DNA of 34,795 bases, from NCBI GenBank assembly GCA_947165195.1, contig CAMUZJ010000003.1, positions 1-34,795 on the forward strand, read 5' to 3'. Positions 3,845-34,484 of the stretch are shown here, one piece after another; position 1 is the stretch's first letter; every line of letters begins with the position of its first letter. Position numbers and translations under genes: made by a program. The notes beneath the pieces were generated by a model, which did not search any database, had not been told where the DNA came from, and saw only the letters and a list, made by a program, of their open reading frames with translations. Source of the DNA: an uncultured Bacillota bacterium (GTDB lineage: Bacteria > Bacillota_I > Bacilli_A > RF39 > UBA660).

Positions 3845-3871
3845 ATAGTTTCAAGCTATCTATTATTTTTC
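3841..3871 (+). terminator. Intrinsic terminator between convergent genes
   Basis: ATAGATAG-TTTCAAG-CTATCTAT stem followed by TATTTTTC. Confidence 0.65.
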
Positions 3872-4360
3872 TCTAGAAAAATCTATTGTTCTTTTTGTTT
3901 TTTGTTTATTATGGGAATTACTATTTCTTTGTTTTCTAGCTTGAGCTTCTCTACTTTTTTGTTTACGAATGGCTTTTTCTAAAATATTACATATTCTTTG
4001 TTCCTCTTCTGTTTTTACTTTTTTACCATTTAATCCCATTTCTATTTCTAGTCCTAAAATATCTGTCCAATCTTTGGTTGCTAGATATTGTTCCTGACAC
4101 CCCATCTCTAAAGATCTGTTAAATATTTCTATATTTCTTCTAGAAATTACTCTATTAGCTTGTTCTATTTTATAACTAAGTTCTTGATTATTTTGTGATG
4201 CATAATATTGAAGAGATTGTCTAACTATGAATGGAAATTCTAAAATTCTCTCAGCTATTTGATTTTGATTTGCAGCTTTTAAATTAAGCATTTCTACAAT
4301 ATTTTTTATATTATTTTGCATTTTTTCACTTTTATAAATTTCTTCTAGTTCTTTTTTCAT
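3863..4360 (-). CDS. Hypothetical protein, charged/coiled, basic C-terminus
   Basis: 165-aa ORF, no recognised motif; ATG preceded by AGGGAGTGA ribosome-binding-like sequence. Confidence 0.7.
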   Translation of the reverse strand: MKKELEEIYKSEKMQNNIKNIVEMLNLKAANQNQIAERILEFPFIVRQSLQYYASQNNQELSYKIEQANRVISRRNIEIFNRSLEMGCQEQYLATKDWTDILGLEIEMGLNGKKVKTEEEQRICNILEKAIRKQKSREAQARKQRNSNSHNKQKTKRTIDFSREK

Positions 4361-4450: not shown

Positions 4451-7400
4451 TTATATTCTTTCTACTTTTATAACAACTTTTTCATCATTTAATTCTTCAA
4501 TTGGCTCATCACTAGTAACTATTAATTCATCTCCTAATACTTCACCCATTACATAATCTTTGTATTTTTCAATCATCTTCTTAACATTATCAGTACCATT
4601 ATAGAATACTTTAATATGATTCGTAATTTCAAAGTCAGATTCTTTACGAAGAGCTTGTACTTTACGAACAAATTCACGGGCAAGTCCTTCTAAGATTAAA
4701 TCTTCTGTCAAAGTAGTATCAATTACTACACAATTTTTTTCATTTACAACGGATGCATATCCATCTTTTTGTTGTAGAGTAATAATTACTGTATCTTCTG
4801 TTAAGGTAAATTCTTCTCCTTCTAGAGAGATTGTTTTTCCACCATTTCGAATTTCCTCTACTTCTTTAGAACCATAATTTTTCATAACATCTTGAAGTAA
4901 TTTTATCTTTTGTCCTAATACTTTTCCTAATTCTTTAAAGTTAGGTTTTACAGTATAATCAAGATACTCACTCATATCTTTTTTATATTCAATATTTTTA
5001 ACATTCAATTCTTCTTTGATAACACTATCTAAATTACCAATTATTTCTTTATCAGATTCTGGTAATATTAAGTTACTAATAGGTTGACGTACTTTGATAT
5101 TTACTTCTTCTCTAGCAAATCTACCTAAAGAACAAATATCTCTTACTAAGTCCATTTTTTCTTCTACTTCTTCATCTATTAATTTCTCATCATATACTGG
5201 ATACGTTTTTAAATGTACAGATTCTTCGCCAGTTAATTTTTGATAGATTTCTTCTGTAATAAATGGAGTAAGTGGAGCACATAATCTACATAAGGTTTCT
5301 AATACTTCATAGGTAGTTAAATATACTGCTTTTTTAGATTCTGTTAGTTCTGAGTCCCAGAATCTTCTTCTATTACTTCTAATATACCAGTTAGATAAAT
5401 CATCATTTAAGAATGGAATAATATATTTCGTTGCTTTATTTAAGTCATACTCTTCCATAGCAGTACCAACATTTTTAATAAGCTTATTTAATTTTGATAA
5501 TAGCCATCTATCAATTAATTCTCTTTTTTCTACTGGTATATTATCCCCCCTTGGATCGATATGGTCAGCATTGGCATACATTTCAAAGAAGGAATATGCA
5601 TTTTTTAAAGTTGAAATATATTTTGAATATACTTCTTTTACTCCTACCTCATCAAATCGAAGTGGTGTCCATACAGGAGAAGTATATAACATATAAAATC
5701 TAATTGTATCTGCTCCGTATTGTGTCATAATCTCTATTGGATTAATAATATTACCAACAGATTTAGACATTTTCTTACCGTGAGCATCTAGCATCATGTC
5801 ATTTACTACTACATTTTTAAAGCTTGCTTTTCCACTGATTAGGGTAGAGATTACAAGAAGTACATAGAACCATCCTCTTGTTTGATCGACACCTTCTGCA
5901 ATAAAATCAGCTGGAAATTGATTTTCAAATAGCTCTTTATTTTCAAATGGATAATGATACTGTGCATATGGCATAGCACCTGAGTCAAACCATACATCCA
6001 TAACATCTAATACTCTTGACATCGTATTACCACATTTAGGACAATGAATATGAATATTATCTACATATGGTCTATGTAATTCCAAATTATCATCTATTTT
6101 TTCAATTGCTTTTTCTTTTAATTCTGCAACAGATCCAATTGTCTCAAAATGACCACAGTCACAAGTCCAAATTGGTAGAGGGCATCCCCAATATCTATTT
6201 CTAGAAATTCCCCAATCAATCATATTTTCAAGCCAATTGGCAAATCTTTTTTCTCCTACATAATCTGGATGCCAATGAATTTTTTTATTTTCTTCTATTA
6301 TCTTTTCTTTATAGGCAGTATTATGTAAGTACCATGCAGGTTTTGCGTAATAGATTAATGGTTGTTTACATCTCCAACAGTGTGGATAATCATGTGTTAT
6401 TTTTACTTTTTTAAATAACTTATCTTCGCTATGTAGATATTTTATAATATCAATTTCTAGTTCTTGTTCTGTTACTAATCTACCTGTCCATGGACCTTCT
6501 GTATAGCATCCATCTTTTCCTACTGGGTTAACAAAAGTGATACCATTTGCTTTACAAACACGATTATCATCTTCACCAAATGCTGGAGCCATATGAACAA
6601 TCCCTGTACCATCACTGGCAGTTACATAATTATCGGCAAGGATTTCAAATGCTTTTCCTTCGACTTTAATAAAAGGCATTAGTTGTTCATATTGTTTACC
6701 AACTAAATCTTTTCCTTTATAGGTTTCTAATACTTCGTATTCTTCTCCTAGTACTTGATTTGCTAAAGTTTGAGCCACTATAAAGTGATACCCTTTACTA
6801 GCTGCTTTTACATAGGTTAAATCAGGATTGACACATAAAGCAACATTAGCAATTAGTGTCCAAGGGGTAGTTGTCCAAACAAGTACATACGTATCTTCTT
6901 CTTTTAATTTAAATGGGACAATAACTGTATTTACAGAAACTTCTTTATATCCTTGTGCCACTTCAAATGATGAAAGTTCTGTACCACATCGATAACAATA
7001 TGGTAATACTTTATTACTGTGATAAATTAGTCCTTTTTTATTTAATTGATCAATAATCCACCATTCTGTTTCAATATATTCATTACTACAAGTAACATAT
7101 GGATTATCACTATCAATAAATTGTCCCATCATATCGGTAACTTTTCTTACTTCATCGATATTGGTTGCTGTTTCATTTTTACATTCACGACAGAAATTTT
7201 CAACTCCTAATTTTTCAATATCTGCTTTTGATTTAAATCCAAGTTTTTTTTCGACATTAACCTCTATTGGTAATCCATGAGTATCAAGACCGATTTTTCT
7301 TAAGACACGGTATCCTTGCATCGTTTTATATTTACAAAAACTATCTTTTATAGTTTTAGCAAATACATGATGAATTCCAGGTTTTGCATTTGCATAAATT

Positions 7401-7540
7401 GGTCCATCATAGAAAACAAAGTCTTCTCCATCTTTTCTTGTTTCGATACTTCTTTTTAATATATCAATCTTTTTCCAATAATCTGTGTATTTTTTTTCTA
7501 CTTCAGAAACTGTTCCTTTCTCTAATTTTTGAAATTCCAT
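4451..7540 (-). CDS. ileS: Isoleucyl-tRNA synthetase, IleRS2 type
   Basis: 1029 aa; FYDGPIYANAKPGIHHVFAKTIKD, GLDTHGLPIE, editing-domain TTTPWTL and DGTGIVHMAPAFGEDD, KMSKSVGN. The DTHGLP and GIVHMAPAFGEDD motifs and length fit IleRS2. Confidence 0.95.
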   Translation of the reverse strand: MEFQKLEKGTVSEVEKKYTDYWKKIDILKRSIETRKDGEDFVFYDGPIYANAKPGIHHVFAKTIKDSFCKYKTMQGYRVLRKIGLDTHGLPIEVNVEKKLGFKSKADIEKLGVENFCRECKNETATNIDEVRKVTDMMGQFIDSDNPYVTCSNEYIETEWWIIDQLNKKGLIYHSNKVLPYCYRCGTELSSFEVAQGYKEVSVNTVIVPFKLKEEDTYVLVWTTTPWTLIANVALCVNPDLTYVKAASKGYHFIVAQTLANQVLGEEYEVLETYKGKDLVGKQYEQLMPFIKVEGKAFEILADNYVTASDGTGIVHMAPAFGEDDNRVCKANGITFVNPVGKDGCYTEGPWTGRLVTEQELEIDIIKYLHSEDKLFKKVKITHDYPHCWRCKQPLIYYAKPAWYLHNTAYKEKIIEENKKIHWHPDYVGEKRFANWLENMIDWGISRNRYWGCPLPIWTCDCGHFETIGSVAELKEKAIEKIDDNLELHRPYVDNIHIHCPKCGNTMSRVLDVMDVWFDSGAMPYAQYHYPFENKELFENQFPADFIAEGVDQTRGWFYVLLVISTLISGKASFKNVVVNDMMLDAHGKKMSKSVGNIINPIEIMTQYGADTIRFYMLYTSPVWTPLRFDEVGVKEVYSKYISTLKNAYSFFEMYANADHIDPRGDNIPVEKRELIDRWLLSKLNKLIKNVGTAMEEYDLNKATKYIIPFLNDDLSNWYIRSNRRRFWDSELTESKKAVYLTTYEVLETLCRLCAPLTPFITEEIYQKLTGEESVHLKTYPVYDEKLIDEEVEEKMDLVRDICSLGRFAREEVNIKVRQPISNLILPESDKEIIGNLDSVIKEELNVKNIEYKKDMSEYLDYTVKPNFKELGKVLGQKIKLLQDVMKNYGSKEVEEIRNGGKTISLEGEEFTLTEDTVIITLQQKDGYASVVNEKNCVVIDTTLTEDLILEGLAREFVRKVQALRKESDFEITNHIKVFYNGTDNVKKMIEKYKDYVMGEVLGDELIVTSDEPIEELNDEKVVIKVERI

Positions 7541-9803: not shown

Positions 9804-11843
9804 CTATTCACCTATATTAGATTGGGGAATAGGTTGCATAATTGGTTCTTGATTCGTATTTGCATAGTTAGGTGCAGAAGGTGGTTTAACGGTTGCAGTA
9901 GCTAAATTCATCCCTGGTAAATAACCACCCTGTTGCAAGGAATTATTTCCCATATGGGACATTGGAACTACTTCTGGCATTGGAGTAATATTGGTCATTA
10001 CTCCAGGACCTCTTTGTGATGCATCAGCATCTAGTAACTGATTTGCTCTTTGTACAGGTACTTCTTGTTTTATTTCTTGATACCATACACTCTTTAGATC
10101 TACATTATTCGATAATGGTGTTGGATTTGGTATATCAATATACATAGGAATTGGTACTTTAAAAGCACTACCAAAAGCAATGCAATTTCCCGGTTTTAAA
10201 TTCTTTAATTGAGAGACTATCTCAGAGGAAATACTAGGTACCATTTCACCAATATAGGCTAGATCTTTCGGATGAAGTGTCCTTAATATAATGAAATTCA
10301 TACATTGAGATACACAAGTATCAGAAAGTTCACTAGGCCTTTGGGTAATTAGTGCTAAAAACATTCCATATTTTCTTCCCTCTTTAGAAATTCTTTCAAA
10401 TATATTGTAGCCTAAAATTTCTATATCGGAGTCATGTTGAACATATCGATGAGCTTCTTCAATTACTATATGAAAAGCTCTGCTTCCCCTTGGCCTCAAA
10501 GTAGAAGTCTTTAAGAATAACATTCTAGAGATAATTTTCGTAAACACTTTGGCTAATCTATCATCTACATAATTAATATTAAAGTTTACAATTTGACACT
10601 TATTACCTGTTGATCTATCCGTTAATAATTGTTCTATATACTCATCTCTTGTTACATAGTTAGGATAATTAAAGTATTCTTTATTCTCACTAGTACATAG
10701 AGTATGCAATCTTACACTTAATACATTGGCATAGTCAAATACTTTCTCACTTTTTAATATTCCTTCACTAATTAAAGCAAAATCCATAGCAAGCTCTAAA
10801 TCATTTAATGTATAGAATTTATTTAATTCGCTCTCTGTGATTTCAATATCTTCTTCCATAATATAGCCTCTAATAAACTCTACTACGGTTTCCATCTCTT
10901 GCATTTTACCTGTTTTATCAATATATAGGCATTGTTTTAGAGTACGTACATATCCAGGTTGTACTATTTGACTTTCTAGATTTAATTCTGGAGTATTATA
11001 TTTGGTAAGTACTGCCATTACCTGGTCTCTAATTTTTGTAGAATCGTTTCCACTAAGTAAAATATCTTGTAGGGCACGAGCTATAATATCATTTTTTCTT
11101 TTTATAATATTGGGAGAAGTTCCTGTTAGAATGGATACTAGTTTTAATGTTTTCTCTAAGATAGGTAACTGTGTTGGAGTAGTAACATCTAATAAAAGAG
11201 CTAAATCATCAACATCTAGTAACCAGATTGGTATTCTTAATACTTCTCCTTCTGGATACTCAGTATTGGTTGTATAGGTTTTATAATATACTGAGTTATT
11301 TACTTCATGCAATTTGGAAAAAGCATTGGTATATTCTCCATACGCATCAAAAAAGAAGAAATTAGAGTGCACTGGAGCTGTTGTATTGGTTGCAAATAAT
11401 TTCTGTAAAATAGATGCAACTGTACTACTTTTTCCTGATCCACTATTTCCTAGTATGGAAAAATGATTACTAAAGAACTCATTAATATCTACGTTAATCT
11501 TATAACCATCATAGACATTACTAGTACCAAAGTTTGCTGTTCCAAATTGAATTTCCGAATCTCCTAAGAATAATTTTAATTCATCCATTTTAACAATTCT
11601 AGGCTTAGATTTAAATGATGGCTTAGATGTAGCTCCTGGAGTAAATACTCCATTATTAATTTCTCCTACAATATTGACATGCATCATTGTCTGATTACAG
11701 TTAACAATTTGTCCTATTACTTTTCTATTACTTCCATCATCAAATACGACATGTAAATTGACTAAGTTAGGTTGACTATTAATATCTATGGAAAGTTTTA
11801 CTGTGACGGTATTATCGATTATTTCACTAATTTTACCTAACAC
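9804..11843 (-). CDS. HerA-like ATPase (DUF87/FtsK-HerA superfamily)
   Basis: N-terminal beta-barrel-like region, Walker A GNSGSGKSST, FFFFDAYGEY, Walker B FHIVIEEAHRYV, EGRKYGMFLALITQRPSELS, RTLHPKDLAYIGEMVP. Confidence 0.88.
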   Translation of the reverse strand: MLGKISEIIDNTVTVKLSIDINSQPNLVNLHVVFDDGSNRKVIGQIVNCNQTMMHVNIVGEINNGVFTPGATSKPSFKSKPRIVKMDELKLFLGDSEIQFGTANFGTSNVYDGYKINVDINEFFSNHFSILGNSGSGKSSTVASILQKLFATNTTAPVHSNFFFFDAYGEYTNAFSKLHEVNNSVYYKTYTTNTEYPEGEVLRIPIWLLDVDDLALLLDVTTPTQLPILEKTLKLVSILTGTSPNIIKRKNDIIARALQDILLSGNDSTKIRDQVMAVLTKYNTPELNLESQIVQPGYVRTLKQCLYIDKTGKMQEMETVVEFIRGYIMEEDIEITESELNKFYTLNDLELAMDFALISEGILKSEKVFDYANVLSVRLHTLCTSENKEYFNYPNYVTRDEYIEQLLTDRSTGNKCQIVNFNINYVDDRLAKVFTKIISRMLFLKTSTLRPRGSRAFHIVIEEAHRYVQHDSDIEILGYNIFERISKEGRKYGMFLALITQRPSELSDTCVSQCMNFIILRTLHPKDLAYIGEMVPSISSEIVSQLKNLKPGNCIAFGSAFKVPIPMYIDIPNPTPLSNNVDLKSVWYQEIKQEVPVQRANQLLDADASQRGPGVMTNITPMPEVVPMSHMGNNSLQQGGYLPGMNLATATVKPPSAPNYANTNQEPIMQPIPQSNIGE

Positions 11844-19021: not shown

Positions 19022-19058
19022 CAATAAAAAGATAGAGAGCTTGCATTACTCTCTATCT
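19022..19058 (-). terminator. Intrinsic terminator of the glucan synthase gene, overlapping its stop codon
   Basis: Reverse strand GATAGAGAG-TAATGCAAG-CTCTCTATC followed by TTTTTATT; the TAG stop (19053-19055) is inside the 5' stem arm. Confidence 0.8.
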
Positions 19059-22000
19059 TATATAAACTACTACTTGATGTTCAATTCCATCATTTGTTAA
19101 TTCAATTGTATTATTTGTTTGCTGTTTGTTGTCTAGTAATACTTCATCATGATTATCTTTGATAATACTAATGTGATATTCCGTATCTATATATCGGTAC
19201 GTTATTTCACATCTATCCCATGAAATTGGCAATTTAGGAGTAAGCTTCATAGATGTACCTGATTTATGTAATCCTAAAAGTTCTTCAGTACCAACCCTAT
19301 AAAACCAACCAGCAGATCCCGTATACCATGTCCAACCGCCACGGCCTTCATGATTTTTTGCGGAATAAATATCGGCAGCTATTACATAAGGCTCTGTTTT
19401 ATAATGCTCTACTGATTCTTTATTCTTTGATCGATTAACTGGATTAATCATTTGATAATATCGATATGCTCTATCATGATATCCACATTTTATTAGGGCC
19501 ATTAAGTACCATGAGACAGAATGGGTATATTGTCCACCATTTTCTCTAATTCCCCTTGGATAATTCATAATGTATCCAGGATTATTTAAAGAACTATGGA
19601 AAGCTGGAGTAAGTAATTTAATAATTTTACTATTATCATCTACTAATTTTTCTTCTACAGAAGTAATGACCTGTTGTTGCCTATCTTTCGGAGCAACTCC
19701 ACTAAGTATAGAGAAACTTTGAGATATTAAATCAATCTTACATTCTGTATTTTCATTACTACCTAATGGGTCTCCATTATCAAAGAATGCTCTTAAATAA
19801 TGGCTTCCATCCCATGTTTTTTTATTTAGATTTTCTTTTAGTTTTTCATTGAATTCTATGTATTCTGAAACATCAAAGTCTCTGTAATGAACTTTCATAT
19901 ATTTAGTAAATTCATCAATAATCAAATATAAGAAGAATCCTAACCAAACACTTTCTCCTTTTCCTTTGATTCCTACTCTATTCATACCATCATTCCAGTC
20001 ACCACCACCCATTAAAGGTATTTTATGATGTCCAAGGGAATGCATAGATAGTTTTAAAGCTTTTATACAGTGTTCTAATAGGCTTTCTGAATAATTAGAA
20101 TAGTTAAAGACCATTCCTTTCTCATTTTCATATTCACTTAAAGTATCTCCTAAAACATAAGGTACTTGTTCTTCTAAAATACTACTATCCTTAGTAATTT
20201 TCAAATAATGTAAGGTAGCATAAACAAGCCATAAGTAATCATCTTTATATTTACTTCTAAGACCAAATCTATTCTTCTCATGCCACCAGTGGAATACATC
20301 TCCTTCTTTAAATTGATGAGCAGCATTGATTAATATTTGATTTCTAGCTAATTCTGGTTTTATCATCGCAACATTCATAGAATCTTGTAGTTGATCTCTG
20401 AAACCAAAAGCTCCACTAACCTGATAGAAACCACTTTTTGCTAGTATTCTAGAAGATAATGTTTGATATAGATACCAACCATTGATCATATAATCAAAAC
20501 TAGTATCAGCAGATTTTACTTTAACAGTGCTTACTGTTTTATACCAGTAGTCTTTAACATCTTTTAATTCACGTTTTACTGTGCTTATATCACTATATTT
20601 CTTTATTAGTTTTAAATTTTCTTCATCACTCATTCCACATCCTAAAGCAAATACTATATATTTTTCTTCTTTAGGTTGCAAGGTAATAGAGGAATTTATA
20701 GATTTTACTAGAATTTTATTTATTTCAGCAGAGTTTATTGGTAGAGAGGATGTCATAAATACATTCACATCACCATAGTTGATGCTATAAACATTACGCA
20801 TCTTTAGATAATTATCATCTCCCATAAATTCTGTCAAAATATGTCTAGCTGTTTTTTCTTCAAAATTACCAAAGGTTGGATTTATCCAAAATTCAATATC
20901 ATAGTCTATTTTTATATTTTCTTTATTGCTTAGTTTCATTAAATATAATTTGACATTATCCTTTAAAGCTACAAACTCTGTTACTTCTGTAATTTTTTCT
21001 TCTGTTTCGCTTGATAAAATAGAATATCCAAATCCATGGGTACATTTCATAGGATCAAAAATTCTTCCATTGAATTTAAATCCTTCACTTTTATCATTAC
21101 ATACCATATCATTTGTCCATGAAGTAATTTTGAACTCTCCTGAATTAAATGCATAAGTAAATCCGCAGCCATTATTTGTAATAATCGTTCCAAAATTCTT
21201 GTTTGCAATAATGTTAGCCCAAGGGGTAGGTGTATCTTTATTGTAGATTACATATTCTCTACCTTCATTTTTAAATCCACCATATCCGTTATCTAATGTT
21301 AATTTTTCAGAATTTGGCAATTTGAGATTTACCTCATACTTCATTCTACTATAGTCACTTACAAAGTTATTACTTTGTAACTCTTCAATAGCTTCTTCTA
21401 ATGTTTGATGATCATCAATATTAAAATGAATTCTGGCAACAACTTGTAATAATGTATATTCCTCTGCTGATATTTGACTATTATCTATTACAGTAATTCC
21501 CCCTGGAGTATGATAGAAATTATTTAATGTATACATACGATACATTTCATCATCTATTTCTTTATTTATAATTTTATTATATTGACTATTTTCTTTATTC
21601 AAGATGATTAAATCAATAAATATAGAATGATTTTTATAATATTCAAATGCTTTTAATACATCATATACAAAGCTCATATCACTAATATCACTGATTTCTA
21701 CCAATACAATTGGTCTATCACCACTGATTCCAAATTTCCATAAACCAGATTGTCCTAAAGCATTCTTTCTTAATAATTCCATTCTTTCATTAGTTACACT
21801 AATTCTAGTTGTTTGATATAGATAATTAAGCATAATATTAAACATTCTCATGGTTTGTCCATTAATATTTAAATCTTTTGTATTAGTAATACTCATTAGA
21901 GTCGCTACTTTAAAGACATTACTAATAGTTCTTTCATTATCATAACTTTTTATAATATCTGATATTTGTTCTTTACTTCTTCCAAATCCTACAATTAAAT

Positions 22001-25000
22001 AAACTGTCTGACTTGCCCCTGGATACACATCAATTGTATTTCTAATACTAATTACTGGATCAAGATTATCGCCACAATAATTACTCAACGTATTATTCAA
22101 AGCTATTGGATTTGTAGTAGTATGATTTCTTCCTACAAAATTAATCCTTTCTGTTTCATAAGAGTAATCATCTGTTGGATTTTGTATTAATAGTCTATGT
22201 ACCATATAACTATTGATATTGGTCTCTCCTCTAGACTTTCTTCTAGCAATTAATGAATTAGTCTTTTTATCATATTCTGTTGAAATAAACATACTATTGA
22301 AAGCTCTATGACTAACATCATCCATGTTATCAGAAAGAATTGGTTCTGTATAACTAGTTAATTCCAAATGTTTAGTTTCATTTGTATTATTTTTAAATGT
22401 AACTTTTCGAATTTCTGCATTATGATTTTTACAAACGATTATTTCTGTTTTTGTTGTTATTCCACCATCAACTCTAGAATACTTTATTCTGTCACTAGCG
22501 AAAACCACTTCATATCTTTCAGGTTTTTCATTAATAGGTGCAAAGGTATTACTCCATATTCTATCGCTATTTAAATCCTTAATATATAGGAAAACACCAT
22601 AATCTTGTTCTGTTATTTTTCGATATCTATTTAACTGAAGTGTTCTATATCTTGAGAAGCTATTTCCTCTATCATTCATTAATAAGCAATATTTTTTATT
22701 AGATAAAACCGATACTTCTGGTAAATAGGATATGTAGTCAAATGCCCTAATATCATTTTCAATAGTTTCTTTTTCATAATCGTATTTTTTATATTTTACC
22801 ATCTTCATATCTATACTAGTTTTTACTTGAACTTTTTCTTTTAATAAAATATCAAAGGTTTTTATATATAAATTTTGATGGAAATAATTTTTGATAATGT
22901 TAGGCCTTAAGTAATTTGCAATTCCTGCTAAAATCATCCCTTGGTGATGAGCAAAATATGCTTCAACTACCCCTTTATTATCATAATCATAAGATTCATA
23001 AAAACCATACTTATCATACATTTGTAATTTTTTGAACTTTTCCATATTATCATAAACGTCTTCTGGAAATAATTCTAAAGCCATGATAGACGCATATGGA
23101 GATAGTACAATTCTATTATCTTTATCTTCTTTTGCCTTTAGATAAGGAGTAGAAAAAGCTTTATATTTATAATTAAGAGCATTATCCAATTCATTATAAG
23201 CGGCTTCACTAATCCCCCAAGGGAGGTTTTTAGAAACACTTTCAATATAGTCTTTTTGACAAAATCTAGCAAATTGATAAGATTCATCTAACAATGTATT
23301 TGGATAATTTTTCATAAATAGTAGTGGCATGTAATATTCAAAAGAAGTTCCTGACCATGAAATTAACCCTTTATGACCTTTGTATGTTGTAAGGGATTTA
23401 TCTAGGCAGAACCAATGTTTTGATGGTGCATCTCCTAAACAGATTGCTATATAACTTAATAATCTTGATTCGCTAGCAAATTTATTATAATTATAAATGG
23501 ATAATTTTCCTTCATCATCATCATAACCTATACTAAATACTTCTTTTTTTGTATAAAGTTTCCGAAAATTTGTATTATTAATTAAATTATCGCAGAGTTT
23601 AATCACTTTTGGATTGTCAAACTTTCGTAAGAATTCTCCTGTTACAATTAAACTTGCTACAAAATTACCAGAATCTACTGATGATATAAATCTACCTGGT
23701 AAAACTTTCTTATTTTTAATATCATACCAATTATATAAGTGCCCATGCCATTTTTCTAAAGAATCGACAGTCTTTAGTATATTTTCAATTAGGAATAAAG
23801 CATCTTTTTCTTCTATAAATCCTAATTCGTATGCTGATACAATACTAGTTAAAGAATATCCAATTGCTGTAGGAGATGTTCTTAAATCTAGTTTTTGTTC
23901 TCTATTTTCTTGGTAATTATCTGGAATTAAATAATTATATTCCTCTTTTAAATTTTCCTTGAAATAATTCCATGTTCGAAGTGCTAAATCTTCGATTTCT
24001 TTTACCTTCTTTTCACCTAGTTCTATACGATCATGTTCTATATCGCGACTTACATAATATAGTATGAAAGGTGCAGATAAAAATACAAGTGATAGAAGAT
24101 ATGCAAAATAATTATTTGCAATAAAACCATATATAATTAGTAGAAAAACTAATATTATGTTTGGAGTAAAATTTTTTAGGTAACTTACAAAATCTCCTCT
24201 AACCGTTTTTTCTACTTCTTCTGCTGTTATCCAATTTAATAGATTTTTATGGCTTATAAACAATCGGTATAAAGTCCTAAAAAATGCATCCATATATAAT
24301 TTTGTATAAAATGGAAGGTTGCAAAAAACAATATAGCATCTAGCTACTAGGCTTTTTCCTCCGAAGAATAAGTTTTTATAGTAAACTGTTGTTTTTTCTC
24401 TATTTTTTATATTCATTTTGCTTTTTAGATAAAATATAATAGGAAGTGCTATTTCCAAAACTACAAAAGCAAACCACCAAAGTGGTGATACAACTCCACA
24501 TACTAGAGATAATAATAAGATTAGCAATAACATAGGATGTAAAAACATTCTAATAATATTATCTAATATTTTATATTTTCCTAGTAAATTAATTGGATTT
24601 TTTATTTTGTTTCCGTTTTTATCTGGTACCTTTGTTAGGAGCCACTCTATAATTTGTACATCTCCTCTAGCCCAACGATGATGTCTTGTTATATCTGTTA
24701 AGAATTTTGATGGAAAGTCATCAATAAACTCAATATCTGATACATATCCACATCTTAAATAGTTTCCTTCTAACAAATCATGGGAAAGAATTAAATTATC
24801 TGGAAAAGCGTTCGATAACACTTTATCAAATACTTCCAAGTCATAAATGCCTTTTCCTACAAAACTTCCTTCATGAAAGCAATCTTGATAAACATCAGGT
24901 ACAACAGCTGTATATGTATCAAATCCTCCTATTCCAGCAAAAATTTGGCTATATAAGCTTTTATTAGTAGCTTCAATATCTACACTTACCCTAGGTTGCA

Positions 25001-26708
25001 TTAATCCATATCCAGAAATAACCTTGTTCCCTTCTTTATTTAATACAGGTTTGTTTAATGGATGAGACATACATCCTACTAAATTTAATACAGTATTTAA
25101 TACAACCCTTGTATCCGTATCTAAAGTAATTACATACTTAATGTTTAAATCATGTTCATGTAGCATGTTAACGTTAAAGTATTTTTCTTCAGATTCTTTG
25201 TCTAATTTATTTAAAAGAATCTTATTAAAATGTAGTAGTGCCCCTCTTTTTCGTTCATATCCTAAAAATGTATTTTCTTTTTCATTCCAAATTCTTTTTC
25301 TATAAATGAAGTAAAATAATTTCTTTTTATATTTCGAATTTAATTGATTAGCATATTCTTCACCATATTTTGAAATTTCTTCATCATAATCGCATATTTC
25401 TGTATCACTAGCTTTTACATCTCCTAATAAAGTAAAGTATAAATTATTAGATTTATTTATTACATAGAACATTTCTAATGTATCAAACATTTCTTTTATC
25501 TTTTGCTTATTAGATACAATAGTCGGGATTACCACCATTGTACTAGCACTTTTAGGAATACCTTTAGAATAGTCTAACTTTGGAAGTACTTTGGTCGGTA
25601 CAAATCTAATTAATAACTGATTTAATATTTGGACAAACAATTGGCTTACTGGTATTAATAAAATTAAGAAGCCTAATACTTTGTATTTAATAAAGTATTT
25701 AGAAAGTATAAAACTAACTAATATTGTAAATATAAGTATCGTAAAAATATAGGATATTACTTTTATGTTGTTGTTATTGTTTCTTTTAAATAATTGGAAA
25801 CCTATATGGTAGTTTTTACTGTCAGCTTTACTTAAAAGACTGTCTAAATATTCTACTTCATGACAATGGTTTTTCTTTGCTAAATGTAATAACCTTTTTC
25901 GATATAAATCTTTAGATTCAGCTGTCATTTTATCGTAGATTTCATCTTCCATTAGCATTTTTTCTGTTTTACTAATTTTTTCAAATAAATCTTCTTTAGA
26001 ATATTCAAAAAATTCTTTTAAATCTCCAAAAATATTTGATACTAATATATCACTGTCAATTTTCTTTTGATATTCATCATTAATCAATTCTTTTAAGATA
26101 ATTTGTTTCTTTTCAAGTAATTCATTTAACTGTTTAAATAACTTATTACTTCTACTGCCTAGCTCTTTCAATTCTTTATTTAATTCAAATATGTAATTAG
26201 AATTTTCTTCAATAGAAAAATCATCTTTAATAAAGTGATGAAGTTCAATTTCTTTATCTTCTCTTTCCTTTATAGTTGATAATATTTGTTCTTTATCTAT
26301 TAACTTTTTATGTTCTTCTTTACAAATTTGACTTAATTTTTCTATATATATAAATAATAATACTTCTTTGATACTTTCTATCTCTAAATAAGATAGATAA
26401 GTATTATTATTTTTTTGATATTTTTTTAATTCATCAGATAATAGTTTTAAGCTAACATTATAATTATTCTTTATTACTATATCTTTTATACAAAAATAAA
26501 TACTGCTTATATTTCTTGTTCGTTTTTTTATACTTCGTTTATTATGTATAAAATTAGTTTTATGTTCAACTACTAAATAAAAATTATCTATTAGCCATTC
26601 ATTAGTAATTCCTACATATTCTTTATTTTTTGTTTTGTTAACTAAAAAATTATAATAATCGCTTATATCATTAATCTCGGATATAAATTTTCTAAAAAAA
26701 TTAGCCAT
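19053..26708 (-). CDS. Cyclic beta-1,2-glucan synthase-like protein (NdvB/Cgs-like: GT84 + glycoamylase-like + GH94)
   Basis: 2551 aa. YVITLDTDTRV and HDLLEGNYLRCGYVSDIEFIDDFPSKFLTDITRHHRWARGDVQIIEWL (GT84); GTSFEYYMPLLF...PWGISEAAYN...VVEAYFAHHQGMIL (glycoamylase-like); GAFGFRDQLQDSMN, MGGGDWNDGMNRVG and GRGGWTWYTGSAGW (GH94). Confidence 0.93.
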   Translation of the reverse strand: MANFFRKFISEINDISDYYNFLVNKTKNKEYVGITNEWLIDNFYLVVEHKTNFIHNKRSIKKRTRNISSIYFCIKDIVIKNNYNVSLKLLSDELKKYQKNNNTYLSYLEIESIKEVLLFIYIEKLSQICKEEHKKLIDKEQILSTIKEREDKEIELHHFIKDDFSIEENSNYIFELNKELKELGSRSNKLFKQLNELLEKKQIILKELINDEYQKKIDSDILVSNIFGDLKEFFEYSKEDLFEKISKTEKMLMEDEIYDKMTAESKDLYRKRLLHLAKKNHCHEVEYLDSLLSKADSKNYHIGFQLFKRNNNNNIKVISYIFTILIFTILVSFILSKYFIKYKVLGFLILLIPVSQLFVQILNQLLIRFVPTKVLPKLDYSKGIPKSASTMVVIPTIVSNKQKIKEMFDTLEMFYVINKSNNLYFTLLGDVKASDTEICDYDEEISKYGEEYANQLNSKYKKKLFYFIYRKRIWNEKENTFLGYERKRGALLHFNKILLNKLDKESEEKYFNVNMLHEHDLNIKYVITLDTDTRVVLNTVLNLVGCMSHPLNKPVLNKEGNKVISGYGLMQPRVSVDIEATNKSLYSQIFAGIGGFDTYTAVVPDVYQDCFHEGSFVGKGIYDLEVFDKVLSNAFPDNLILSHDLLEGNYLRCGYVSDIEFIDDFPSKFLTDITRHHRWARGDVQIIEWLLTKVPDKNGNKIKNPINLLGKYKILDNIIRMFLHPMLLLILLLSLVCGVVSPLWWFAFVVLEIALPIIFYLKSKMNIKNREKTTVYYKNLFFGGKSLVARCYIVFCNLPFYTKLYMDAFFRTLYRLFISHKNLLNWITAEEVEKTVRGDFVSYLKNFTPNIILVFLLIIYGFIANNYFAYLLSLVFLSAPFILYYVSRDIEHDRIELGEKKVKEIEDLALRTWNYFKENLKEEYNYLIPDNYQENREQKLDLRTSPTAIGYSLTSIVSAYELGFIEEKDALFLIENILKTVDSLEKWHGHLYNWYDIKNKKVLPGRFISSVDSGNFVASLIVTGEFLRKFDNPKVIKLCDNLINNTNFRKLYTKKEVFSIGYDDDEGKLSIYNYNKFASESRLLSYIAICLGDAPSKHWFCLDKSLTTYKGHKGLISWSGTSFEYYMPLLFMKNYPNTLLDESYQFARFCQKDYIESVSKNLPWGISEAAYNELDNALNYKYKAFSTPYLKAKEDKDNRIVLSPYASIMALELFPEDVYDNMEKFKKLQMYDKYGFYESYDYDNKGVVEAYFAHHQGMILAGIANYLRPNIIKNYFHQNLYIKTFDILLKEKVQVKTSIDMKMVKYKKYDYEKETIENDIRAFDYISYLPEVSVLSNKKYCLLMNDRGNSFSRYRTLQLNRYRKITEQDYGVFLYIKDLNSDRIWSNTFAPINEKPERYEVVFASDRIKYSRVDGGITTKTEIIVCKNHNAEIRKVTFKNNTNETKHLELTSYTEPILSDNMDDVSHRAFNSMFISTEYDKKTNSLIARRKSRGETNINSYMVHRLLIQNPTDDYSYETERINFVGRNHTTTNPIALNNTLSNYCGDNLDPVISIRNTIDVYPGASQTVYLIVGFGRSKEQISDIIKSYDNERTISNVFKVATLMSITNTKDLNINGQTMRMFNIMLNYLYQTTRISVTNERMELLRKNALGQSGLWKFGISGDRPIVLVEISDISDMSFVYDVLKAFEYYKNHSIFIDLIILNKENSQYNKIINKEIDDEMYRMYTLNNFYHTPGGITVIDNSQISAEEYTLLQVVARIHFNIDDHQTLEEAIEELQSNNFVSDYSRMKYEVNLKLPNSEKLTLDNGYGGFKNEGREYVIYNKDTPTPWANIIANKNFGTIITNNGCGFTYAFNSGEFKITSWTNDMVCNDKSEGFKFNGRIFDPMKCTHGFGYSILSSETEEKITEVTEFVALKDNVKLYLMKLSNKENIKIDYDIEFWINPTFGNFEEKTARHILTEFMGDDNYLKMRNVYSINYGDVNVFMTSSLPINSAEINKILVKSINSSITLQPKEEKYIVFALGCGMSDEENLKLIKKYSDISTVKRELKDVKDYWYKTVSTVKVKSADTSFDYMINGWYLYQTLSSRILAKSGFYQVSGAFGFRDQLQDSMNVAMIKPELARNQILINAAHQFKEGDVFHWWHEKNRFGLRSKYKDDYLWLVYATLHYLKITKDSSILEEQVPYVLGDTLSEYENEKGMVFNYSNYSESLLEHCIKALKLSMHSLGHHKIPLMGGGDWNDGMNRVGIKGKGESVWLGFFLYLIIDEFTKYMKVHYRDFDVSEYIEFNEKLKENLNKKTWDGSHYLRAFFDNGDPLGSNENTECKIDLISQSFSILSGVAPKDRQQQVITSVEEKLVDDNSKIIKLLTPAFHSSLNNPGYIMNYPRGIRENGGQYTHSVSWYLMALIKCGYHDRAYRYYQMINPVNRSKNKESVEHYKTEPYVIAADIYSAKNHEGRGGWTWYTGSAGWFYRVGTEELLGLHKSGTSMKLTPKLPISWDRCEITYRYIDTEYHISIIKDNHDEVLLDNKQQTNNTIELTNDGIEHQVVVYIR

Positions 26709-33743: not shown

Positions 33744-34484
33744 ATGAATGGATATCAAAATGAGATAGACTTTGTCAATTGTTTAAATAGAAAGTATGTC
33801 AGTCAATTAAGCAATAATATGAAAGATTTTTTATATGACTTATTTGATAATTTAAATGATAGTGATTATATCATTTGCTGGAAAAACAGTATTAATCAAA
33901 AGTCTGATATTTTTATTAAGATAAATAAATACGTAAAAGGTGTCAGTCTGAAATTAGGTCATGATAATTCAGTTCATAGTGAATCTATTCAAAATTTTAA
34001 AATATTTTTGGAAGATTTAGAAATTCCTTATAAAGTTATTAACTACTATATAAATTATCATTATGGTATAAAAAAAGAAAATGATAAAGTTATTGGAAAG
34101 TATACTGCTGAGGAATACAAAAAAAGTCATATAGAAGAGTTACGAATTCTAAACAAATATCTTAATAGGACGAAAGGAATAATATCAAGTGTTGATAGAT
34201 TTTTAGTAAAAAGTGCTAATAGTAGATATGATATATCAGCTATTGTAAGTGGAAATCCAAATAATTTCACATGGATAAAAAAAGACGATTTATATGATTT
34301 AGTATTGTCTCATCAAAGCGATTATACCACTACACCACATATTGGTAATTTAATAATTCAACCTAAAATTAGAAATTTATCAGGTAACTGCAAAAATCCT
34401 AAAGATATTTTTATTGTGCAAATTAAGTGGTATTTAGTATTTGAAGATATTGAAAATTTTAAAAAAAGAAGAAATTATAGTTAA
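33744..34484 (+). CDS. Hypothetical protein; possible PD-(D/E)xK-type nuclease-like family
   Basis: 246 aa; AGGGGGTGA ribosome-binding site; NQKSDIFIKINKYVKGVSLKLGHDNSVHSESIQNF resembles D-x(n)-[ES]-x-K nuclease cores. Family assignment is inference. Confidence 0.7.
   Translation: MNGYQNEIDFVNCLNRKYVSQLSNNMKDFLYDLFDNLNDSDYIICWKNSINQKSDIFIKINKYVKGVSLKLGHDNSVHSESIQNFKIFLEDLEIPYKVINYYINYHYGIKKENDKVIGKYTAEEYKKSHIEELRILNKYLNRTKGIISSVDRFLVKSANSRYDISAIVSGNPNNFTWIKKDDLYDLVLSHQSDYTTTPHIGNLIIQPKIRNLSGNCKNPKDIFIVQIKWYLVFEDIENFKKRRNYS

What the first reader, a model, noticed from the sequence alone, without database searches (positions are those of the whole stretch)
7367..7378. IleRS2 with swapped class-I signature: GIHH in place of HxGH
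The translated sequence is YANAKP-GIHH-VFAKTIKD. Aligned to normal class-I synthetases (YANGxxHIGHxxNKxLKD), the first and third positions of HIGH are exchanged, giving GxHH. I read this directly on the DNA (ATGATGAATTCC on +). The rest of the protein looks intact (DTHGLPIE, editing domain, KMSKS), so this is not a pseudogene. From established knowledge, a naturally occurring HxGH-to-GxHH swap in some IleRS2 enzymes is linked to extreme mupirocin resistance without loss of catalysis. This would be an instance in an apparently gut-type, AT-rich Firmicute lineage.
Basis: partly seen in the sequence, partly recalled or inferred. Interest (0 to 1): 0.8.

Follow-up and report, generated by a model that had tools for sequence, protein, structure and literature searches.

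The report
Known swapped-motif isoleucyl-tRNA synthetase
An uncultured gut-type bacterium makes its isoleucine-charging enzyme with two key catalytic residues swapped, a variant already described in 2023 that probably makes it naturally almost immune to the antibiotic mupirocin; here it is the ordinary housekeeping enzyme of most of the bacterial family.

Summary
Window 7367-7378 (minus strand) encodes Gly-Ile-His-His, residues 55-58 of an intact 1029-aa isoleucyl-tRNA synthetase (4451-7540). No HxGH occurs elsewhere in the protein. It is not an error or a pseudogene: all 126 IleRS2 genes of this type in the same family carry G[I/L/V]HH, and dN/dS against three near relatives is about 0.13. 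The biology is published. Brkic et al. 2023 (PMC10485003) described G/AXHH in 86 of 163 prokaryotic IleRS2 and linked it to millimolar mupirocin Ki. Natural examples are Streptomyces griseus and Deinococcus radiodurans; I also read the motif in Acetoanaerobium, Riemerella and Nonomuraea. This work adds little: the enzyme is the only IleRS detected in this genome, in four same-genus genomes and in most family members, whereas most sampled relatives in the class use IleRS1. It is a chromosomal lineage trait, not an acquired resistance gene. Mupirocin resistance itself is inferred, not measured. In passing I found a KXHH motif (Lys at position 1) in a divergent IleRS2 clade of five species of the same family, outside the published G/AXHH description.

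The parts
4451..7540 (-). ileS2: isoleucyl-tRNA synthetase type 2, 1029 aa
   Evidence: TIGR00392 920.5 bits, cut-off 621.4; Pfam PF00133, PF08264, PF19302; best PDB matches are P. megaterium IleRS2 structures, about 960 bits, against about 350 for IleRS1
7367..7378 (-). non-canonical class I signature GIHH, residues 55-58
   Evidence: direct reading; aligns to HVGH of wild-type and GVHH of mutant P. megaterium IleRS2
7262..7285 (-). DTHGLPIE active-site block, residues 86-93
   Evidence: alignment, coordinates
6854..6874 (-). TTTPWTL of the CP1 editing domain, residues 223-229
   Evidence: alignment, coordinates
5759..5773 (-). KMSKS second class I signature, residues 590-594, canonical
   Evidence: alignment, coordinates

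Best explanation
The gene is the housekeeping, chromosomal ileS of an uncultured gut-type Bacilli-related bacterium. It encodes a type 2 IleRS with the known GXHH signature. Shown here: an intact, conserved gene; GIHH at the HxGH position; IleRS2 membership; the sole IleRS detected in this genome, in its same-genus relatives and in most family members. Inferred from the published P. megaterium and D. radiodurans work: the third-position His takes over the catalytic role of the missing first His, which is tolerated because the IleRS2 motif helix is shifted away from the adenine, and the same His clashes sterically with mupirocin, giving a Ki in the high micromolar to millimolar range. The organism would then be intrinsically mupirocin resistant as a property of its housekeeping enzyme.
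For: Motif and intactness. Closest solved structures are PmIleRS2, the GVHH mutant 8c8w scoring best by a small margin. 126 of 126 family IleRS2 of this type are G[ILV]HH. Sole IleRS: own genome and same-genus G578, G650, G707, G759. Kinetics and structures: DrIleRS2 ALHH Ki 6.6 mM, falling 823-fold when changed to HVGH; GVHH raised Ki from 1.08 to 460 uM in PmIleRS2 (PMC10485003). The gene clusters with Acetoanaerobium noterae GIHH IleRS2, apart from HXGH IleRS2 including MupA.
Against: No enzyme or strain of this lineage was assayed. The genome is a MAG, 80.5% complete with 4.2% contamination, so a second IleRS could be missing, although same-genus genomes up to 95% complete also lack one. 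Mupirocin Ki varies widely among GXHH enzymes (35 uM for the engineered T. thermophilus mutant to 6.6 mM), so 'extreme' resistance is not guaranteed.
Confidence: 0.9

Rival explanations
1. It is an acquired mupirocin-resistance determinant, like plasmid-borne MupA, beside a sensitive IleRS1.
For: The MupA model scores 966 bits and MupA plasmids are relatives at about 45% identity.
Against: MupA itself carries HAGH, not GXHH, and falls in another IleRS2 branch. No second IleRS in the genome or in same-genus genomes. The score is far below MupA's cut-off of 1900. Neighbours are ordinary chromosomal genes: Na/Ca exchanger, SepF, HerA-like ATPase, methionine gamma-lyase. The same enzyme type occurs through the family.
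Confidence: 0.04
2. The GXHH motif reflects the ancestry of this IleRS2 clade and is not currently maintained for resistance; low mupirocin affinity is incidental. This is compatible with the best explanation and differs only on why the motif is kept.
For: The motif is fixed in a clade spanning many genera, with no reversion among 126 sequences, and it occurs in unrelated settings such as Acetoanaerobium, Riemerella and Nonomuraea.
Against: Cannot be decided from sequence; selection by a natural IleRS inhibitor is equally possible.
Confidence: 0.5
3. Sequencing error, pseudogene or a non-synthetase paralogue.
For: Loss of the first motif His would normally cripple a class I synthetase.
Against: 126 of 126 family homologues share the motif, dN/dS is about 0.13, the other motifs are intact, and it is the only IleRS found.
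Confidence: 0.01

Closest known systems
G/AXHH IleRS2 (Brkic et al. 2023, PMC10485003): Streptomyces griseus and Deinococcus radiodurans IleRS2
   Same: Same swapped signature at the same site, IleRS2 type
   Different: Different lineage; D. radiodurans has ALHH; no kinetics exist for this enzyme
Acetoanaerobium noterae (Clostridia) IleRS2, locus L268
   Same: GIHH, 52% identity over the whole length, same clade
   Different: Cultivated Clostridia member; outside the window's family
Priestia megaterium IleRS2 (PDB 8c8u, 8c8v, 8c8w, 8c9d)
   Same: IleRS2 fold and length, closest solved relatives; the engineered GVHH mutant mimics this motif
   Different: Wild type has canonical HVGH, and the organism also has IleRS1
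MupA (Staphylococcus plasmids)
   Same: Mupirocin-resistant IleRS2 relative, about 45% identity
   Different: HAGH motif, plasmid-borne, additional to a native IleRS1

Membership tests
Isoleucyl-tRNA synthetase (TIGR00392) | Scores above the curated cut-off over the full length | tested here: met
   920.5 bits against 621.4
IleRS type 2 | Groups with IleRS2, not IleRS1 | tested here: met
   PDB scores about 960 (PmIleRS2) against about 350 (PmIleRS1, SaIleRS1); tree, IleRS2 side 100% SH-aLRT
GXHH IleRS2 (Brkic 2023) | Gly or Ala at position 1 and His at position 3 of the class I signature | tested here: met
   GIHH, residues 55-58; no HxGH elsewhere
GXHH IleRS2 (Brkic 2023) | Otherwise intact active site (KMSKS, DxHGLP) and editing domain | tested here: met
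   alignment blocks
GXHH IleRS2 (Brkic 2023) | Mupirocin Ki far above canonical IleRS2, with catalysis retained | not testable with these tools
   needs enzyme kinetics
MupA (NF000257) | Score above the MupA exception cut-off of 1900 bits; plasmid location | tested here: not met
   966 bits; ordinary chromosomal neighbours

The most novel reading that the evidence does not exclude
Within the same bacterial family a divergent IleRS2 clade has gone beyond the published G/AXHH swap: five species carry KXHH (Lys at position 1), with an altered second signature (KFSKT where that part of the gene was read), while their nearest relatives keep GXHH. If these enzymes are active, only positions 3 and 4 of the signature are essential once His has moved to position 3, and position 1 is free to change.
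Probability: 0.5. Interest if true: 0.4.

Novelty: new member of a known kind. Interest (0 to 1): 0.2.

Why it matters
It adds a large uncultured gut-associated lineage in which the swapped-motif enzyme is the only IleRS found, so intrinsic mupirocin resistance can be predicted for it from sequence. The KXHH side observation offers a direct test of the published idea that the third-position His replaces the first.

Tried and rejected
Rfam at gathering thresholds found only tRNAs in the window and no T-box ahead of ileS. Plasmid and phage searches showed no mobile close relative: the best plasmid-collection hit is the 2.6-Mb Acetoanaerobium record, chromosome-sized. An apparent HFHH pattern hit (G584, L305) is not an IleRS and was discarded: no match to the IleRS query, and G584 has an IleRS2 elsewhere. 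Four blank motif labels in the first tree came from my trimming past the motif; with the labels, the tree needs only 2 changes among the HXGH, GXHH and KXHH states, the minimum for three states. The acquired-MupA reading was rejected. Naming the lineage precisely was not possible: the guess of RF39/UBA660-like Bacilli is from memory and untested, and the closest relative with a genus name is Candidatus Faecisoma. No structure prediction was run because solved close homologues exist.

Full report
What is there. The plus strand at 7367-7378 reads ATGATGAATTCC; its reverse complement GGA ATT CAT CAT gives Gly-Ile-His-His, residues 55-58 of an uninterrupted 1029-aa ORF at 4451-7540 on the minus strand, with an ATG start and AGAAGGAGG just upstream. 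The protein scores 920.5 bits to the curated ileS model against a cut-off of 621.4. Pfam gives the class I catalytic domain, the anticodon-binding domain and DUF5915. The motif aligns exactly on HVGH of wild-type P. megaterium IleRS2 and on GVHH of its engineered mutant.

Real rather than error. I fetched the gene from relatives. Of 146 genomes searched at order level (all reported under one family code), 126 carry this IleRS2, 12 carry an IleRS1 with canonical HXGH, 2 carry a distinct IleRS2 with KIHH, and 6 show no full IleRS. The 126 motifs are GLHH 72, GIHH 45, GVHH 9, with no HXGH. Among 80 loci from the named genome collection, 79 are GXHH and one is truncated before the motif. Against three near relatives dS is 0.92-1.16 and dN 0.12-0.15. 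The editing-domain TTTPWTL, DTHGLPIE, ISRNRYWG, DQTRGWF and KMSKS blocks are intact.

Which type, and is it the only one. PDB comparison gives about 960 bits to PmIleRS2 and about 350 to IleRS1 structures. In the tree the gene lies on the IleRS2 side (100% SH-aLRT), in a clade with Acetoanaerobium noterae (Clostridia, GIHH, 52% identity). HXGH IleRS2, including plasmid MupA (HAGH), lie outside that clade. The window's genome has no other IleRS; it is only 80.5% complete, but same-genus G578 (95% complete), G650, G707 and G759 also have only a GIHH IleRS2. In a phylum-level sample of 291 genomes, nearly all outside this family have only IleRS1-like matches; two others (G338, G261) have an IleRS2, both with HIGH. 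Neighbouring genes are ordinary chromosomal ones.

How it works. The mechanism is taken from Brkic et al. 2023 (PMC10485003). In IleRS2 the tip of the motif helix is displaced, so a His at position 3 fits without hitting the adenine and occupies the place of the catalytic first His. When mupirocin binds, the motif moves back and that His would clash with it. DrIleRS2 (natural ALHH) has a Ki of 6.6 mM, falling 823-fold when changed to HVGH; GVHH in PmIleRS2 raises Ki from 1.08 to 460 uM. Applied here this predicts an active enzyme and intrinsic mupirocin resistance. That step is inference.

P. megaterium IleRS2 is not a natural GxHH enzyme; the wild type is HVGH. The motif is also common: 86 of 163 IleRS2 in the 2023 survey are G/AXHH, and I read it directly in Acetoanaerobium and Riemerella (GIHH) and in Nonomuraea (GVHH).

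Side finding. In the same family a divergent IleRS2 clade (motif context ITANN-x-M-[GK]-x-HH, KFSK for KMSK; in the KXHH members read in full also DGQGLW for DTHGLP and EQIRLWF for DQTRGWF) includes four genomes with GXHH and five with KXHH. The five are four species of one genus (G017, G033, G512, G513) plus G573, and they form one clade (100%). The Lys codons differ between species (AAA, AAG), so it is not a shared error. In G017 and G033 (94-95% complete) no other IleRS was found. The 2023 paper reports Gly or rarely Ala at that position; its supplement was not open to me, so I do not claim that no one has seen Lys there.

Verdict. A correct observation of an already described enzyme variant, in a lineage where it is the family norm. 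Interest is low; the KXHH variant is the only part a specialist might not expect.

Noticed in passing
L214 (G033), L215 (G017), L276 (G512), L277 (G513), L311 (G573): Divergent IleRS2 with KXHH signature (Lys at position 1) and, where that part was read, KFSKT in place of KMSKS; one clade of five species next to GXHH relatives.
   Followed up: partly
L216-L227 (12 genomes of the same family): Twelve family genomes carry IleRS1 (HXGH) and no IleRS2 in the search; these IleRS1 form one clade (98%), suggesting a lineage-level exchange of housekeeping IleRS.
   Followed up: partly
L308 (G653), L309 (G557), L310 (G691): Genomes with the divergent GXHH IleRS2 plus a second IleRS; the three divergent copies are near-identical and the MAGs are 3-5% contaminated, so co-occurrence may be contamination.
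   Followed up: no
window 19053-26708 (-): 2551-aa ORF that looks to me like a cyclic beta-glucan synthase / NdvB-type protein, very large for a 1-Mb genome; not tested by profile search.
   Followed up: no
window 9804-11843 (-): HerA-like (DUF87) ATPase of 679 aa beside sepF.
   Followed up: no
window 3863-4360 (-) and 33744-34484 (+): Two ORFs (165 and 246 aa) without any Pfam match.
   Followed up: no
L255 (G418): IleRS1-like protein with motif HAGT in context YPNGDIHAGTAL, fourth motif His lost.
   Followed up: no
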